Assembly: GCA_020436085.1 (NCBI GenBank)
Contig: JAGQYM010000012.1
Coordinates: forward strand, 1 to 64,000
Length of the DNA stretch: 64,000 bases
From: Cyclobacteriaceae bacterium
Lineage (GTDB): Bacteria > Bacteroidota > Bacteroidia > Cytophagales > Cyclobacteriaceae
Direction: 5' to 3'
Shown here: positions 5,390 to 37,777 of the stretch, one piece after another
Layout of the letters: each line of letters opens with the position of its first letter
How positions within the stretch are numbered: the first letter of the stretch is position 1
The notes under the pieces: model-generated
Database searches by the model: none
What the model saw: the letters and a program-made list of their open reading frames with translations, nothing else
What the model was told of the DNA's origin: nothing
Position numbers and translations under genes: made by a program

Positions 5390-7783
5390 ATGCTGAAAAA
5401 CCACTTTAGGAGCGCCATTCGAAATCTGAAAAAACACAGGGGCTTCACCCTCATTCACGTTGGCGGATTGGCCATCGGGCTGGCTGCATCCATTCTGGTG
5501 CTACATTATGCCAGACTCGAACATGCTTATGATGAATTTCATGTCAACGCCAGGAACACTTACCGAATCACAACTGAGCGCCTTCGCGAAGGAGTACCTA
5601 CCTCCCACTTTGCCTCGACATTCGCGGGTGTAAGCCCGGCAATCCTGGCAGAATATCCGGAGGTGACAGCATCATGCAGGTTATTCAAACGTTACAGGGG
5701 AGGTGTGGTGTCATTTGAAGATGAGCACTTTCGCGAAAGCAATGTCTTTCATGCGGACTCAGGTTTCTTCAAAGTATTCTCATTTCCGCTCCTCAAGGGA
5801 GTTGAGAATGATCTCTTCAAACCCGGCAGCGCTTTCGTTGAAGAACAGACTGCTATCAAATATTTCGGGTCTGAAGATCCGATCGGTAAGCGAATTAAGT
5901 TTGGAAGTTTTGACGGTGTGGAAGAATATGAAATACGCGGTGTCATTCGCTGCCCTGATACGTCTAGCATTAAGTTCACATTCCTGTTCTCATATCATGA
6001 CTTAGGTAGAATATTTGGTACTCAACATGAAAGCAATTGGTCCTGGCTTGACTTTCACACTTTTACTGTATTGAAAGACGGAGAAAATGCCGCGGGCTTT
6101 GAAAATAAACTTAAGTCGCTCACTGAAAAAAATCTTGGCCCCAGGTCGGCTACAGTTGCTCTCAGAGTTCAGCCATTCACAGATATATATCTAAAATCAA
6201 AAACTGAATTTGAAACAGGAAAAACTGGAAATGAAACAGTAGTTAACGTGCTGCTCGCTCTAGGTATCATTATCCTGGCTATTGTTTCCTTGAACTTTAT
6301 CAATCTAAGCACGAGTCATTCATTAACACGAGCGAAGGAAGTTGGCATCAGAAAGGCCCTTGGCTCGTCTCGCCAAAATCTCATTTGGCAATTTATAATT
6401 GAAACGTTTCTAACCACCTCTATCGCTCTCGTACTGTGCATCGCTCTTATTGCTCTAGTATTACCCTATTTCAATCAACTAACCCAGCGTGATGTCAGCC
6501 TTACATCATTCTTTGCCTCAGAACTATGGTTGTATCTGGCTGCTTTTCTTGTCATAGGTTCTCTTATCATTGGTTTTTATCCGGCATTGGTACTCTCGGC
6601 ATTTCGGGCTGTAGATGTGCTGAAAGGTTTTTTTATTCCAAAAGGAAAAGGGAATCTGGTTCGGGAAATGTTTGTAGGCTTCCAAGCCTTTGTTTCTTTT
6701 TCCTTGGTGGTAGCGATTCTTGTTATCATCGATCAACTGCGCTTTGTTAATCAAAAGGACTTGGGCATAAATATTTCGCAAACACTGGTTGTAAGAACGC
6801 CTGATATCAACACTGATGGCTACCTCAATTCATTGGATAGTTATAAGTCGACCGTTCGGCAATTGCCTGGCGTAGTTGATATAGCAACGACTGTTGATTC
6901 ACCAGGTTCCCCCATCAGCTGGCTTGGTGGTTCAAGAAAAGTAGGCGCAGATATCAATGACACACATTCGTTTTTTCGTGCGGTGATAGATGAAGATTTT
7001 TTAAACACTATGGAGGCGAAGCTCCTTGCCGGAAAGATGTTTTCTCCAAATCAGTATGATCGGGACATTCTCATCAACAAAAGGGTGGCCTCGGATCTGG
7101 ATTTTGACAACCTGGATGAGAGCATTGGCCAGCGGATTCTCATTGGCAGGGATACGTTCAACGTCATTGGCGTGGTTGACGATTTCCATCAGGTGAGTCC
7201 ACGTGAGGCTGTTCCTCCAACTGTCTTTCACTACAATCTTGAACCTCCCCGACTCTTCATGATTAAATATGAAAAGGGTCATGAACAAGATTTGGTGAGA
7301 TCGGCCGGAGACGTCTTTGCAAAGATGTATCCCAACGTTCCTTTCGACTATTATTTTCTTAGCGATTTTTTTGATCAACAATACGACATGGAACGAAGGT
7401 TAACAACGATCGTCACTGCCTTTTGTATCCTGGCTATTATCGTCTCTTCGTTAGGACTGCTTGGGCTGACCTGGTTCCGTCTGGCTCGTCAGAAGAAGGA
7501 ACTCGCAATCCGCAAGATCATTGGATCAAGCGACCTCAATCTCTTCGCGAATGCTTCACGAAGACTTGTACTTACGACCTTTATTGGATCCATCGCAGGC
7601 ATACCAGTAATCTGGATGTTGATGAATCGATGGCTAGAGTCTTTCTCCTATCACACTTCACCAAAGCTTTGGGAATTTGCTGTCGCTATTGTTGTCTCTC
7701 TTCTCATCTTGCTGGTATCCATTTCAGGGCATACGATCAAGGTGATCAGAACCAATCCCGTAAATCATTTGAGGCAGGAGTAA
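5390..7783 (+). CDS. MacB/FtsX-type ABC transporter permease
   Basis: A 797-residue inner-membrane permease of the duplicated MacB type. Order: N-terminal TM (about 21-41), MacB-like periplasmic domain, three TMs (about 285-405), a second TM with a periplasmic domain, and three final TMs. Each half carries the cytoplasmic coupling motif, RAKEVGIRKALGSS in the first and ELAIRKIIGSS in the second. The chain ends in the family tail TNPVNHLRQE. Such permeases need a separate ATPase, and none is encoded nearby. It is the first gene of a rightward operon: the next gene begins three bases after its stop. It is more divergent in its second coupling motif than the permeases at 42-64 kb. Substrate unknown; peptide, lipid or lipoprotein export are family possibilities. 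Confidence 0.9.
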   Translation: MLKNHFRSAIRNLKKHRGFTLIHVGGLAIGLAASILVLHYARLEHAYDEFHVNARNTYRITTERLREGVPTSHFASTFAGVSPAILAEYPEVTASCRLFKRYRGGVVSFEDEHFRESNVFHADSGFFKVFSFPLLKGVENDLFKPGSAFVEEQTAIKYFGSEDPIGKRIKFGSFDGVEEYEIRGVIRCPDTSSIKFTFLFSYHDLGRIFGTQHESNWSWLDFHTFTVLKDGENAAGFENKLKSLTEKNLGPRSATVALRVQPFTDIYLKSKTEFETGKTGNETVVNVLLALGIIILAIVSLNFINLSTSHSLTRAKEVGIRKALGSSRQNLIWQFIIETFLTTSIALVLCIALIALVLPYFNQLTQRDVSLTSFFASELWLYLAAFLVIGSLIIGFYPALVLSAFRAVDVLKGFFIPKGKGNLVREMFVGFQAFVSFSLVVAILVIIDQLRFVNQKDLGINISQTLVVRTPDINTDGYLNSLDSYKSTVRQLPGVVDIATTVDSPGSPISWLGGSRKVGADINDTHSFFRAVIDEDFLNTMEAKLLAGKMFSPNQYDRDILINKRVASDLDFDNLDESIGQRILIGRDTFNVIGVVDDFHQVSPREAVPPTVFHYNLEPPRLFMIKYEKGHEQDLVRSAGDVFAKMYPNVPFDYYFLSDFFDQQYDMERRLTTIVTAFCILAIIVSSLGLLGLTWFRLARQKKELAIRKIIGSSDLNLFANASRRLVLTTFIGSIAGIPVIWMLMNRWLESFSYHTSPKLWEFAVAIVVSLLILLVSISGHTIKVIRTNPVNHLRQE

Positions 7784-32843: not shown

Positions 32844-32875
32844 AAAACCCCGACATGTATACCTGCCGGGGTTTT
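32844..32875 (-). terminator. Intrinsic terminator of the 240-residue gene
   Basis: AAAACCCCG (32844-32852) and CGGGGTTTT (32867-32875) form a perfect 9-bp stem with a 14-base loop. Read on the minus strand it lies 18 bases after the stop of the 240-residue gene and ends in a T run, as expected of a rho-independent terminator. Confidence 0.8.
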
Positions 32876-32893: not shown

Positions 32894-33616
32894 TCATCTG
32901 AGCTTGGGTTTGGTGAAACTTAACTCCTTAACCTGGCCGAACTCTGCGCTGCCGGGGCCATAGAGTACGCGGACGTAGCTCTTTACCCTGTTCGCATTGT
33001 TCACCAGCGATACCGCATCCTTGTACAACACCTTGTCGCGATGCTGGATGGTGACAGTGCGGGCCAGGCGGGCCTTGGACACCTCATCATTCTTCGTCTT
33101 CAACAAAGCTGCCTTCACGGCCAGTTGCTCCGGCTTCAGCTCCTCCTCGTTGGTCACGTAGCCGGGCAGGTTCGTCACCATGTTGACCAGTTGCGCAAAG
33201 TGGTCGGCAATGGCGGTGAAGCTTTGCTGCGTACGGCTGCGAGCAACTACCGGCTGCTGATCGGCCTCCGTAGAGGGCACGGCCTGGCGTTGGCTCTTGG
33301 TACGTCCTGAGATAATTCTCAAGTGGAAGCGTGCATCGTCAAGGGTGGCCTCGCTCATTGCCAACGCCTTTAAGGTGAAGACAATCTTTGAAGCCAGCGG
33401 CTTTACGTCTGCAAACGCATTCTCCCTGTCGTTAACCAGGGCGTAGTAAGCGTTCGTTTTAAGTGAAACATCTTGCAATGAACTTTGTGCTTCTTTAAGC
33501 AAAGCTCTCATCGCTTTAAGCTGGAGGGTCTGGCGACCGGGGTTATACTTACCTCCGAACCCGGTGCAGATGTCTACTAACCTGGAGTAGCGCATCGCAG
33601 TTTTTGCACTAGACAT
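32894..33616 (-). CDS. Hypothetical protein of unrecognised family, GC-richer than neighbours
   Basis: A 240-residue soluble protein with no signal or membrane segment. It begins MSSAKTAMRYSRLVDICTGF then GGKYNPGRQTLQLKAMRALL, followed by long alanine- and lysine-rich helices and a basic segment with R-T-K-S-Q-R, suggesting an all-helical, possibly nucleic-acid-binding protein. No enzymatic motif is seen. The gene is visibly richer in G and C than its neighbours. It is preceded by an AT-rich region and, 150 bases upstream of its start, by the 22-bp tandem array, and ends at its own terminator. The start at 33616 is chosen because the longer frame (33682) adds a hydrophobic leader read from AT-rich DNA. 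Function unknown. Confidence 0.7.
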   Translation of the reverse strand: MSSAKTAMRYSRLVDICTGFGGKYNPGRQTLQLKAMRALLKEAQSSLQDVSLKTNAYYALVNDRENAFADVKPLASKIVFTLKALAMSEATLDDARFHLRIISGRTKSQRQAVPSTEADQQPVVARSRTQQSFTAIADHFAQLVNMVTNLPGYVTNEEELKPEQLAVKAALLKTKNDEVSKARLARTVTIQHRDKVLYKDAVSLVNNANRVKSYVRVLYGPGSAEFGQVKELSFTKPKLR

Positions 33617-33765
33617 AACTTGTAAAAGTTTGAGTGTTAAACATACCTTAATATACGAAAACCCTAGACTATAAAGTTTCACTTTTTAGAAAAATATTTT
33701 AAAAAAGTTTTAAGATTTTTCTCTTGGACAGAAGAGTGTTTGGATGGGCTGTCACTCCGGTTAGT
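33617..33765. other. AT-rich region between the unknown gene and the 22-bp array
   Basis: About 150 bases with long A and T runs (33696-33722 is nearly all A/T). It probably holds the promoter of the leftward 240-residue gene, but I cannot place -33/-7 elements with confidence. The first array-like bases appear at about 33744. Confidence 0.4.
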
Positions 33766-34139
33766 CTGGCCTGTTACTTGGGTTCATCCGGCATCCAACT
33801 CCTGTTGCTGTGGCATGCTGGTCCAGATACTGCGGCATATTACTCCACTCCCTCCGGCATGCTCCCCTACTTACCCCGGCATGCTCCTCTACTCCTTCCG
33901 GCAGACTGGTACACTCTTCCCGGCATGTTGTCCTACAATCTCGAGCAGGTTCCTCCACTGCCTACGGCATGTTACTACAGTCTCTCCGGCATGTTCCTCT
34001 GCTTTGTAAGGTCTATTGGTCTACTCAGTCCGGTATATCACTCCACATTGTCCGGCATGTCGCTACACTTCCTCCGGCATATAGGTCCACTTTGTCCGGC
34101 AGGGTCCTGGAGTTTGTCCGGCAGGTTCTACCATTTGCT
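33766..34139. repeat. Seventeen 22-bp degenerate tandem repeats, no indels
   Basis: Units start at 33766 and then every 22 bases to 34118, without a single insertion or deletion. Each reads about CCGGCATGTT, two variable bases, then TCYACTTTCT. The first block (CCGGCA) is best kept; positions 11-12 vary among AC, CC, GG, GT, GC and CT, never starting with T. Diverged units are at 33942 (CGAGCAGG) and 34008 (AAGGTCTA). Twenty-two bases is about two helical turns, so equal sites would face the same side of DNA. All three plus-strand frames stay open for long stretches because the consensus has no stop codon; I do not call a protein. The array lies between the M14 gene terminator and the AT-rich leader of the unknown gene. 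Confidence 0.85.
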
Positions 34140-34145
34140 AAAAAA

Positions 34146-34173
34146 GGAAAGGCTTCCTTGCGGAAGCCCTTCC
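34146..34173 (-). terminator. Intrinsic terminator of the M14 peptidase gene
   Basis: GGAAAGGCTTCC and GGAAGCCCTTCC form a 12-bp stem with one mismatch around a TTGC loop, flanked on the left by a run of seven A (34139-34145). Read on the minus strand this is a stem followed by a T run, 24 bases after the M14 stop. Confidence 0.8.
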
Positions 34174-34197
34174 TTCATTTGGCTCAAATATATATTG

Positions 34198-36948: not shown

Positions 36949-37053
36949 AATTCTTCAAGTTTTTGCGGAGCGAATATAAGGAGGGGCGCGAAACGGTCTG
37001 ACTTTAGACTGATAAGCGGTTAAGGGAGGGGTTGGTTTGGAAAGAGGACTCAT

Positions 37054-37080
37054 GAGCACGGAGCTAAGTTCCCGCTAGAG
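37054..37080 (+). repeat. REP-like palindrome, copy 3
   Basis: GAGCACGGAGCTAAGTTCCC followed by GCTAGAG. The left arm has one change and the right arm lacks one base compared with the other copies, so the hairpin is imperfect. It precedes copies 4 and 5 at spacings of 50 and 48 bases. Confidence 0.75.
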
Positions 37081-37103
37081 AAGGAGGTTGGGTAATGATT
37101 ATG

Positions 37104-37133
37104 GAGCACGGAAGTAACTTCCGCGCTAGAGGA
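37104..37133 (+). repeat. REP-like palindrome, copy 4
   Basis: GAGCACGGAAGTAACTTCCG followed by CGCTAGAG. GGAAG and CTTCC pair exactly around TAA. It ends in the CTAG tetranucleotide that borders most copies. Confidence 0.8.
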
Positions 37134-37151
37134 GAGGAAAGAGGACTGATA

Positions 37152-37180
37152 GAGCACGGAACTAAGTTCCGCGCTAAAGG
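37152..37180 (+). repeat. REP-like palindrome, copy 5 (left half of a REPIN)
   Basis: GAGCACGGAACTAAGTTCCG followed by CGCTAAAGG. The GGAAC/GTTCC variant keeps pairing relative to GGAAG/CTTCC (compensatory change). With the inverted copy 6 twenty bases later it forms a REP pair 3' of the RAYT gene. Confidence 0.8.
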
Positions 37181-37200
37181 GGAGTTAGAAAAATTTAGCT

Positions 37201-37225: not shown

Positions 37226-37777
37226 TCACTCCATAAACTCAATATTCAAAAGTCCTTCGCCTGTTCCGTGATAATCCCTCGCACTACTGTAAACATACTC
37301 CTCTTCTTTTTCAACAATACCCGCTTTAACAGGATTCTGATGAATATAGTCCAACTTCTGCTCCATCATTTCATTTGTATTCAACTCAATAGGGTGATAC
37401 TGATTCTGCCAAAATTTATACTTACGATGTTTATTGCTACTATCAGCTGCTTTTGAAAACACTCCGAGCATCCAATCTTTCCTGCTATCCCCACTATTTT
37501 CAATCAATCGGCAGATGGTAACCGATGAGTATTTCTTGAAATCCCTAACTATATCCTGAACATCGTAAGAACCGTTTCGTCCGATAATCATGTGAATATG
37601 GTTACTCATGATACACCAGCCATAGATTAAAAGCCCTTTGTTCTGCTGACAGTATCTGATGCTTTCTAGGAATGCATCTCTGTACACATGCTTGGTGAAC
37701 ACCTCAATCCAACCGATAACAGCGAAGGTTATGAAATGTAATCTCTCTTGATCCCGAATCTTGTATTTCTCGCTCAC
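37226..37777 (-). CDS. REP-associated tyrosine transposase (RAYT)
   Basis: A 183-residue Y1-type HuH nuclease of the IS200/IS605-like TnpA_REP group. The HuH motif is His60-Ile-His62 (CIMSNHIHMIIG) and the candidate nucleophile is Tyr144 in KLDYIHQNPVKAGIV, followed by the YVYSSARDYHG tail typical of this group. These enzymes cut single-stranded REP hairpins and are thought to have spread REP elements. The gene is bounded on both sides by head-to-tail pairs of a REP-like palindrome (copies 5/6 and 7/8) and looks intact. No accessory TnpB is present. It appears domesticated, not a full IS. Confidence 0.92.
   Translation of the reverse strand: MSEKYKIRDQERLHFITFAVIGWIEVFTKHVYRDAFLESIRYCQQNKGLLIYGWCIMSNHIHMIIGRNGSYDVQDIVRDFKKYSSVTICRLIENSGDSRKDWMLGVFSKAADSSNKHRKYKFWQNQYHPIELNTNEMMEQKLDYIHQNPVKAGIVEKEEEYVYSSARDYHGTGEGLLNIEFME

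What the first reader, a model, noticed from the sequence alone, without database searches (positions are those of the whole stretch)
33766..34139. Strictly phased 22-bp tandem array of unknown function
Seventeen degenerate copies of a 22-bp unit keep exact register for 374 bp with no indel, although individual units differ in up to half their bases. Random decay of a minisatellite would normally add indels, so spacing seems selected. The period is about two helical turns, like iterons or stacked operators. The best-kept part is CCGGCA; positions 11-12 form a variable pair (AC, CC, GG, GT, GC, CT). The array is bounded by the M14 gene terminator on one side and the AT-rich leader of an unknown, GC-richer gene on the other.
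Basis: partly seen in the sequence, partly recalled or inferred. Interest (0 to 1): 0.75.

Follow-up and report, generated by a model that had tools for sequence, protein, structure and literature searches.

The report
Protein gene with its phased DNA array
The 22-base repeat run is one half of an apparently undescribed two-part module, an unknown small basic protein gene plus a helix-phased DNA repeat array beside it, which recurs with quite different repeat sequences but nearly the same spacing in many Bacteroidota genomes.

Summary
The array is real: 17 units of 22 bp (33766-34139), plus a degraded 18th at 33744, without indels. The neighbouring 240-aa gene (32897-33616, minus strand) belongs to an unnamed multicopy family without a Pfam or NCBIfam family or a credible PDB relative. 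Of 72 family loci with adequate flanks, 55 carry a tandem array; 0 of 160 random control pieces do. In 40 loci with long flanks, 33 have an array within 1 kb of the gene and 0 at 1.5-2.5 kb. Array sequence differs between loci; the period hardly does: 55 of 62 arrays lie at 21, 22, 42, 43 or 44 bp. Array consensus follows protein identity, in fixed orientation. The protein is basic (median pI 9.68) and internally duplicated. Of four upstream-type arrays searched in their own genome, three have a full-length partner array elsewhere without the gene; the fourth has only a short cluster. Best reading: an iteron- or centromere-like binding platform for the adjacent protein. DNA binding is inferred, not shown.

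The parts
33744..34139 (-). Phased tandem array: 17 units of 22 bp (33766-34139) plus one degraded unit (33744-33765); unit on + strand about CCGGCATGTTNCTCCACTTTCT. It is upstream of the minus-strand gene; the strand given is that of the gene it accompanies
32894..33616 (-). Gene of the array-linked protein family (240 aa, pI 9.94, net charge +15, internal duplication in the family profile)
33617..33743 (-). AT-rich leader, presumably with the promoter, between array and gene; partly alignable to leaders of paralogues L070 and L071 in the same genome
   Evidence: L034 vs L070 from -95, vs L071 from -117
32844..32875 (-). Terminator-like hairpin just after the family gene (12-bp stem, T-rich tail)
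   Evidence: 4 such sites found in the region, 2.5 expected in shuffles; this is the longest stem
34140..34176 (-). Terminator-like hairpin of the M14 gene that bounds the array (neighbour, not part of the module)
   Evidence: read by eye; the scanner did not list it

Best explanation
Shown: a two-part module, consisting of a gene for a basic, internally duplicated protein of about 240 aa and, in most examined loci, a tandem array of about 8-24 units beside it, each unit about two helical turns long (21, 21.5 or 22 bp, often alternating as A/B pairs of 42-44 bp). Inferred: the array lies outside the gene's transcription unit; the protein binds its own array in a sequence-specific way, each half of the duplicated protein covering about one helical turn, so that protomers line up on one face of the DNA as a long regular nucleoprotein complex. 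Indels are removed because they would throw later protomers out of phase, while the recognised sequence can drift together with the protein. Where a second array of the same consensus exists elsewhere in the genome, the same protein would bind both, to control the two neighbouring genes together or to bridge the two sites, in the manner of iteron handcuffing.
For: Linkage: 55 of 72 family loci with adequate flanks against 0 of 160 controls; 33 of 40 within 1 kb against 0 of 40 at 1.5-2.5 kb of the same loci; a 21/42-bp array also beside 3 of 5 examined copies from outside the order. Period: 55 of 62 arrays at 21, 22, 42, 43 or 44, strict phase and no decay. Co-variation: same-strand consensus similarity 0.63 for 34 pairs with over 70% protein identity against 0.375 on the reverse strand, at background below 60%. 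Protein: pI over 9 in 61 of 67, median 9.68; N half aligns to C half by profile, probability 96%, E 4e-9. Placement: a terminator-like hairpin starts 15-54 bp after the start of the stop codon in 11 of 15 downstream-type loci, in some overlapping the estimated array edge. Trans partners: C33 with C119, C22 with C66, G019 C13 with C1; the first two pairs share a consensus but no unique co-linear register; no family gene on the fetched 12-16 kb around the partners. Each of these three partners lies 133-216 bp upstream of a gene, in the same orientation as the gene-linked array. Curvature is not selected (z 0.24, sem 0.17) and RNA folding of the window array is unremarkable.
Against: No binding, structure or expression data. 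Between close homologues, substitutions are not rarer in well-kept columns (59 of 487) than in variable ones (36 of 426), which a simple consensus-binding model would predict. In 2 of 6 homologous pairs the array differs more than four-fold sites of the gene (L073/L077, L065/L166), in 4 of 6 less; three of the six are not co-linear, so their figures mix substitution and unit turnover. Proteins 85-91% identical can have clearly different arrays (L072/L075 0.58, L073/L077 0.75). Of five module arrays searched in their own genome three had a full-length partner, one upstream-type array of 16 units (L066) only a cluster of about four units, and the one downstream-type array (L078) none. 26 of 88 family loci have no array at the 0.5 threshold, some for lack of flank. 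The genes after the partner arrays share no theme.
Confidence: 0.48

Rival explanations
1. The module is a mobile or selfish element: the gene product acts as (or recruits) a recombinase or replication factor, the array is its recognition and propagation site, and arrays without the gene are solo relics left after gene loss, like solo LTRs.
For: Multicopy (8 matches in G000, 11 in G041, some partial); sporadic across the phylum (6 of 296 genomes); duplicated gene+array pair in G055 (L063/L081); carriage as integron cassettes with attC downstream in 4 of 14 downstream-type loci at the 17-match cut and a fifth at 16; arrays without the gene, two of which in G039 match each other.
Against: No recombinase or transposase family shared by members in Pfam or NCBIfam (67 members), none in PHROGs (12 members) or PADLOC (2 members); the array is on one side only in nearly all; no shared flank ends among most copies; no gene remnant near the partner or orphan arrays except one weak hit of 1 of 68 family proteins beside a short cluster in G060 (E 0.003), likely chance; none in viral contigs by A3, phages or plasmids by one family protein.
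Confidence: 0.22
2. The arrays are ordinary minisatellites made by recombination in permissive gaps between a terminator and a promoter, and the link to the gene is hitch-hiking.
For: Arrays sit in terminator-promoter gaps; whole-unit changes and internal block duplication occur; some arrays differ more than synonymous sites; units stay in register under unequal recombination without selection.
Against: Such gaps are frequent, yet arrays were found in 0 of 160 control pieces and 0 of 40 distal flanks; periods near 2 or 4 helical turns prevail; almost no small indels; units are no more alike when adjacent; partner arrays share a consensus.
Confidence: 0.12
3. The array is transcribed on its own and works as an RNA, as guides, sponge or structured RNA.
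For: Individual units are kept between some homologues better than synonymous sites: array 7.8% against 29% for L050/L078, 7.3% against 41% for L063/L081; orientation is fixed relative to the gene.
Against: No folding signal on either strand of the window array; no Rfam match at gathering scores in the window or L004; placed outside the gene's transcription unit as far as terminators tell; a strict helical phase has no obvious use in RNA.
Confidence: 0.08
4. The array is an architectural curved-DNA element whose period alone matters.
For: Period fixed near 2 or 4 helical turns while sequence is free.
Against: Predicted curvature is not above that of the same arrays with permuted columns (z 0.24, sem 0.17, 28 of 57 above zero; wedge values recalled); correlation at one helical turn is slightly negative, not positive.
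Confidence: 0.04

Closest known systems
Iteron arrays of theta plasmids and lambda (initiator binding sites)
   Same: Tandem direct repeats about 2 turns long, in phase with the helix, beside the gene of a presumed binding protein; [quoted passage not shown]
   Different: No Rep homology; chromosomal; several unrelated arrays per genome; 8-24 units; repeat sequence differs between modules; no origin function tested.
Centromere arrays of partition systems (parS/ParB, parC/ParR, F plasmid sopC)
   Same: Tandem arrays beside the gene of the binding protein (PMC9499535, passages seen: parS sites are often multiple tandem repeats). The 43-bp repeat of sopC is recalled, not read.
   Different: No ParB or ParR family match and no recurring partner gene in most loci; on chromosomes, several per genome.
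Integron gene cassettes
   Same: Some downstream-type copies lie in a roughly 120-kb superintegron (G055), in the order gene - terminator - array - attC.
   Different: Only 4 (5 with a looser cut) of 14 downstream-type and 0 of 42 upstream-type loci show attC; the window copy is not a cassette.
REP/BIME elements with RAYT transposases
   Same: A gene accompanied by short repeats.
   Different: Repeats are tandem, phased and only weakly palindromic (z 0.52); the protein has no Y1 transposase match.

Membership tests
Iteron-type replication origin | Direct repeats in phase with the helix | tested here: met
Iteron-type replication origin | Adjacent gene encodes a Rep initiator of a known family | tested here: not met
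   no Pfam or NCBIfam family shared by members
Iteron-type replication origin | Supports autonomous replication | not testable with these tools
   needs a replication assay; one family protein had no tblastn match in the plasmid collection
ParABS or ParMRC centromere | Array bound by the adjacent gene's protein | tested here: inconclusive
   linkage shown, binding not shown
ParABS or ParMRC centromere | ParB, ParR or other centromere-binding homology | tested here: not met
   PDB profile search gave only 12 weak hits, best E 0.065
ParABS or ParMRC centromere | ParA or ParM partner gene | tested here: inconclusive
   no neighbour family shared by more than 12 of 82 loci; neighbours were not scanned for ParA one by one
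Integron cassette | attC site 3' of the gene | tested here: not met
   window locus is among 42 upstream-type loci with 0 hits at the cut; 4 of 14 downstream-type loci positive
REP/RAYT | Y1 (IS200-like) transposase | tested here: not met
   the family protein has none; the unrelated gene at 37226 does
CRISPR | Near-identical repeats with unique spacers | tested here: not met
   contiguous degenerate units, no spacers
Protein-coding repeat | Conserved open frame through the array | tested here: not met
   28 of 58 arrays have no open frame in any frame (30 have at least one, the window's array one); periods 22 and 43 break a repeated frame

The most novel reading that the evidence does not exclude
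A previously undescribed class of chromosomal nucleoprotein system: paralogous two-domain proteins, each with its own private, fast-drifting DNA code written as a helix-phased array next to its gene, and in several cases a single matching array at one distant locus, so that one genome carries several mutually insulated pairs of sites that could be bridged or co-regulated independently.
Probability: 0.3. Interest if true: 0.92.

Novelty: categorically new. Interest (0 to 1): 0.8.

Why it matters
It would add an unnamed protein family and its DNA target to bacterial genome biology. Period and phase are conserved while the repeat sequence is rewritten from module to module, which is a natural experiment in how DNA recognition co-evolves with a protein. 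The paired arrays make a direct test of long-range site pairing possible. The module is compact, recurs in several paralogues per genome, and has in places been packaged as an integron cassette.

Tried and rejected
Coding array: rejected. Intrinsic curvature: not supported. RNA structure and Rfam: nothing. Simple copying of the whole array to its partner: not supported, several registers fit about equally (two pairs). Integron as the general explanation: rejected, lineage-specific; a first, too strict attC pattern failed even on the downstream-type loci and was replaced by one checked on three known sites, of which it scored two at 18 and one at 13 of 20, so it can miss sites. TIGR02249 as an integrase marker did not discriminate: 53 of 58 genomes matched, none over the cut-off. 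A specificity region in the protein: pairs with changed arrays (25) show more change than pairs with kept arrays (13) at 73-132 and in the C-terminal tail, but also elsewhere, so no conclusion. Conserved operon partner: a protein shared by 12 of 82 loci, in 10 directly after the gene; the label DUF4230 is recalled and the Pfam call failed on coordinates. Common core motif across arrays: seen by eye only (GC-ACC-like), not established. Module at the M14 locus of relatives: no match to the module in the flanks held (1.5 kb or less) after M14, but flanks are too different to define ends. Gene remnant beside gene-less arrays: one weak hit only. Literature: five searches aimed at such arrays and four for comparators listed no paper that by title or abstract beginning describes them; beyond listings I saw only passages of PMC9499535 and PMC5043065.

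Limits of the counts: one search listed 91 family matches (my count of its rows) in 25 of 58 genomes, of which 70 were examined and 21, mostly weak or partial, were not; 13 loci from other genomes (9 with an array at 21, 42, 43 or 54 bp) and 5 distant loci make the 88. Six loci, 4 of them without any array and 2 with 16-bp repeats, are in the 88 but not in the 82 used. The 0.5 threshold was chosen. Controls are random, not intergenic-only, pieces of 5 genomes; loci are related, so p-values overstate independence. One array without the gene was met by chance among the M14 loci (L027). One search counts any period from 12 to 60; one search uses periods 20-23 and 42-44, hence 62 and 58. Genome searches score a capped list of candidates (150 of 526), so further weak partner arrays may be missed; one search also gave a 35-bp hit on C113 (E 0.24) where no array was seen (L023).

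Full report
What is in the window. The array is as described: 17 units of 22 bp at 33766-34139, with an 18th degraded unit at 33744, no insertion or deletion, mean pairwise unit identity 0.58 (range 0.32-0.77) and neighbours hardly more alike (0.61). The period score, 0.63, is far above 200 shuffles (maximum 0.40). It lies in the gap between the M14 gene's terminator-like hairpin and the AT-rich leader of a 240-aa gene on the minus strand, which is followed by its own terminator-like hairpin at 32844-32875.

The neighbour gene is the key. Its product has no Pfam or NCBIfam match; among 67 family members the only hits are scattered weak ones, one member each; the PDB profile search gives 12 weak hits (best E 0.065) and the single protein none; PADLOC (2 members) and PHROGs (12 members) give none. 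It is a multicopy family: 91 listed matches in 25 of 58 genomes of the same genus group, 8 of them (some partial) in the window's own genome. It occurs in 6 of 296 genomes across the phylum, four of them outside the order. Named relatives from the genome collection are Cytophagales, Cyclobacteriaceae, Flammeovirgaceae or 'Bacteroidetes' metagenome assemblies (38 loci).

The gene family travels with phased arrays. I examined 88 family loci: 70 of the 91 matches, 13 from other genomes and 5 distant ones. With one score, one threshold (0.5, chosen) and every period from 12 to 60 allowed, 62 of 88 have an array. Their best periods are 21 (15), 22 (4), 42 (27), 43 (3), 44 (6) and a few others (14: 3, 16: 2, 53 and 54: 1 each). 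Restricted to 72 loci with adequate flanks it is 55, against 0 of 160 random pieces of the same size from five genomes. Within the same loci, 33 of 40 have an array within 1 kb of the gene and 0 of 40 at 1.5-2.5 kb. Of the 17 full-flank loci under the threshold, 10 still have their best period at 21 or 42. Two layouts exist and largely follow the protein tree: arrays upstream of the gene (43 of the 58 detailed; gap 129-386 bp in 38 of the 43) and arrays downstream (15 of 58; within 158 bp of the gene in 13); one downstream-labelled locus, L059, lies inside the upstream clade. A terminator-like hairpin starts 15-54 bp after the start of the stop codon in 11 of 15 downstream-type loci, in some overlapping the estimated array edge. 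I infer that in both layouts the array lies outside the gene's transcription unit.

What is conserved is phase, not sequence. Averaged over 44 arrays of the 21-bp type, autocorrelation is 0.35, 0.37 and 0.38 at odd multiples (21, 63, 105) and 0.53 and 0.51 at even multiples (42, 84), with values near zero one base away; the 22-bp type (10 arrays) behaves alike and the 43-bp type (4) peaks at 43 and 86. Units therefore tend to alternate as A/B pairs, similarity does not decay with distance, and indels have not accumulated. The tree shows periods 42, 43 and 44 intermingled within one protein clade. Consensus sequences of different modules look unrelated, but for 34 pairs with over 70% protein identity the same-strand similarity is 0.63 against 0.375 for the reverse strand, and it is at background below 60% identity. 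The array thus has a fixed orientation and changes together with its gene.

Tempo. In two co-linear homologous pairs (L050/L078, L063/L081; 565 positions) arrays differ by substitutions only; L089/L090 has one 42-bp gap and edge gaps of 3 and 8 bases; L065/L166 has a 1-base gap in the last unit. In four of six pairs the array differs less than four-fold sites of the gene (for example 7.8% against 29%), in two it differs more. Substitutions are not concentrated in variable columns (59 of 487 in conserved, 36 of 426 in variable columns), which speaks against a naive consensus-only constraint and is so far unexplained.

The protein. Sixty-one of 67 members have pI over 9 (median 9.68; window 9.94). 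The N half aligns to the C half by profile comparison (probability 96%, E 4e-9), so each chain probably has two related domains, a natural match to a site of two helical turns. This is inference: no structure could be predicted.

Partner arrays. The window's array type was found as an array at one other place in its genome, C119:6865-7233 (16.8 units). The C22 module's array has one partner on C66 (16.4 units). The G019 module's has one on C1 (16.7 units). No family gene is found on the fetched 12-16 kb around these. The first two pairs share a consensus without a unique co-linear register. Each partner lies 133-216 bp upstream of a gene, in the same orientation as the gene-linked array: a 409-aa protein with a weak HEPN-like PADLOC hit, an anthrone-oxygenase-like membrane protein, and a protein that reads like an ECF sigma factor (not tested against a library). 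Not every array has one: L066, also upstream-type with 16 units, has only a cluster of about four units, and L078, the one downstream-type array searched, none. Two arrays without the gene in G039 also match each other.

Mobility. In G055, three of four copies lie in a 120-kb region with 45 attC-like sites all on one strand, next to an integrase-like frame. Four of 14 downstream-type loci (a fifth at a slightly lower score) have an attC-like site 574-601 bp after the gene; none of 42 upstream-type loci do at that cut. The module can therefore be a cassette, but the window's copy is not.

Interpretation. The simplest account of linkage, strict helical phase, sequence co-drift, basic duplicated protein, placement between transcription units and trans partners is a protein that binds its array as a regular nucleoprotein complex, working like plasmid iterons or centromere arrays (phase dependence of iterons: PMC5043065, passages; tandem parS: PMC9499535, passages). 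It is not a member of either family by the tests made. Binding and purpose (autoregulation, co-regulation or bridging of two sites) remain inferred.

Noticed in passing
window 37039-37184 and 37226-37777 (-): A 48-bp tandem repeat (3 copies) directly beside an IS200-like Y1 transposase gene, looking like a RAYT with its REP/BIME repeats.
   Followed up: no
L176-L181 (G055:C1:2183001-2303000): A roughly 120-kb superintegron with 45 attC-like sites on one strand and an integrase-like frame at its end; many 360/720/840-bp near-identical repeats inside.
   Followed up: partly
L027:1-294 (G039:C144) and L214:8200-8406 (G039:C5): A matching pair of 42-bp A/B arrays, neither beside a known family gene; the second lies within 1 kb of an integrase-like gene.
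   Followed up: partly
L044, L046, L053, L057, L086, L087, L089-L091, L094, just after the family gene: A conserved neighbour protein (LTLEQILSIKELHLVKHTY...) in 10 loci directly downstream of the family gene (12 of 82 loci in all), possibly an operon partner in some clades.
   Followed up: partly
L075 array (G041:C1): A block of several units seems to occur twice in the same order, suggesting growth by in-phase block duplication (seen by eye).
   Followed up: no
L059, L067, L098, L099, L126, L131: Short-period repeats (14 or 16 bp) beside family genes, outside the two-turn rule.
   Followed up: no
L203:5377-5508 (G060:C52), beside a short array cluster at about 5711-5798: A weak match of 1 of 68 family proteins (E 0.003), a possible gene remnant or chance.
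   Followed up: partly
L006, G000:C33:85678-85872 (-): A truncated family-gene remnant about 52 kb from the window's copy on the same contig.
   Followed up: no
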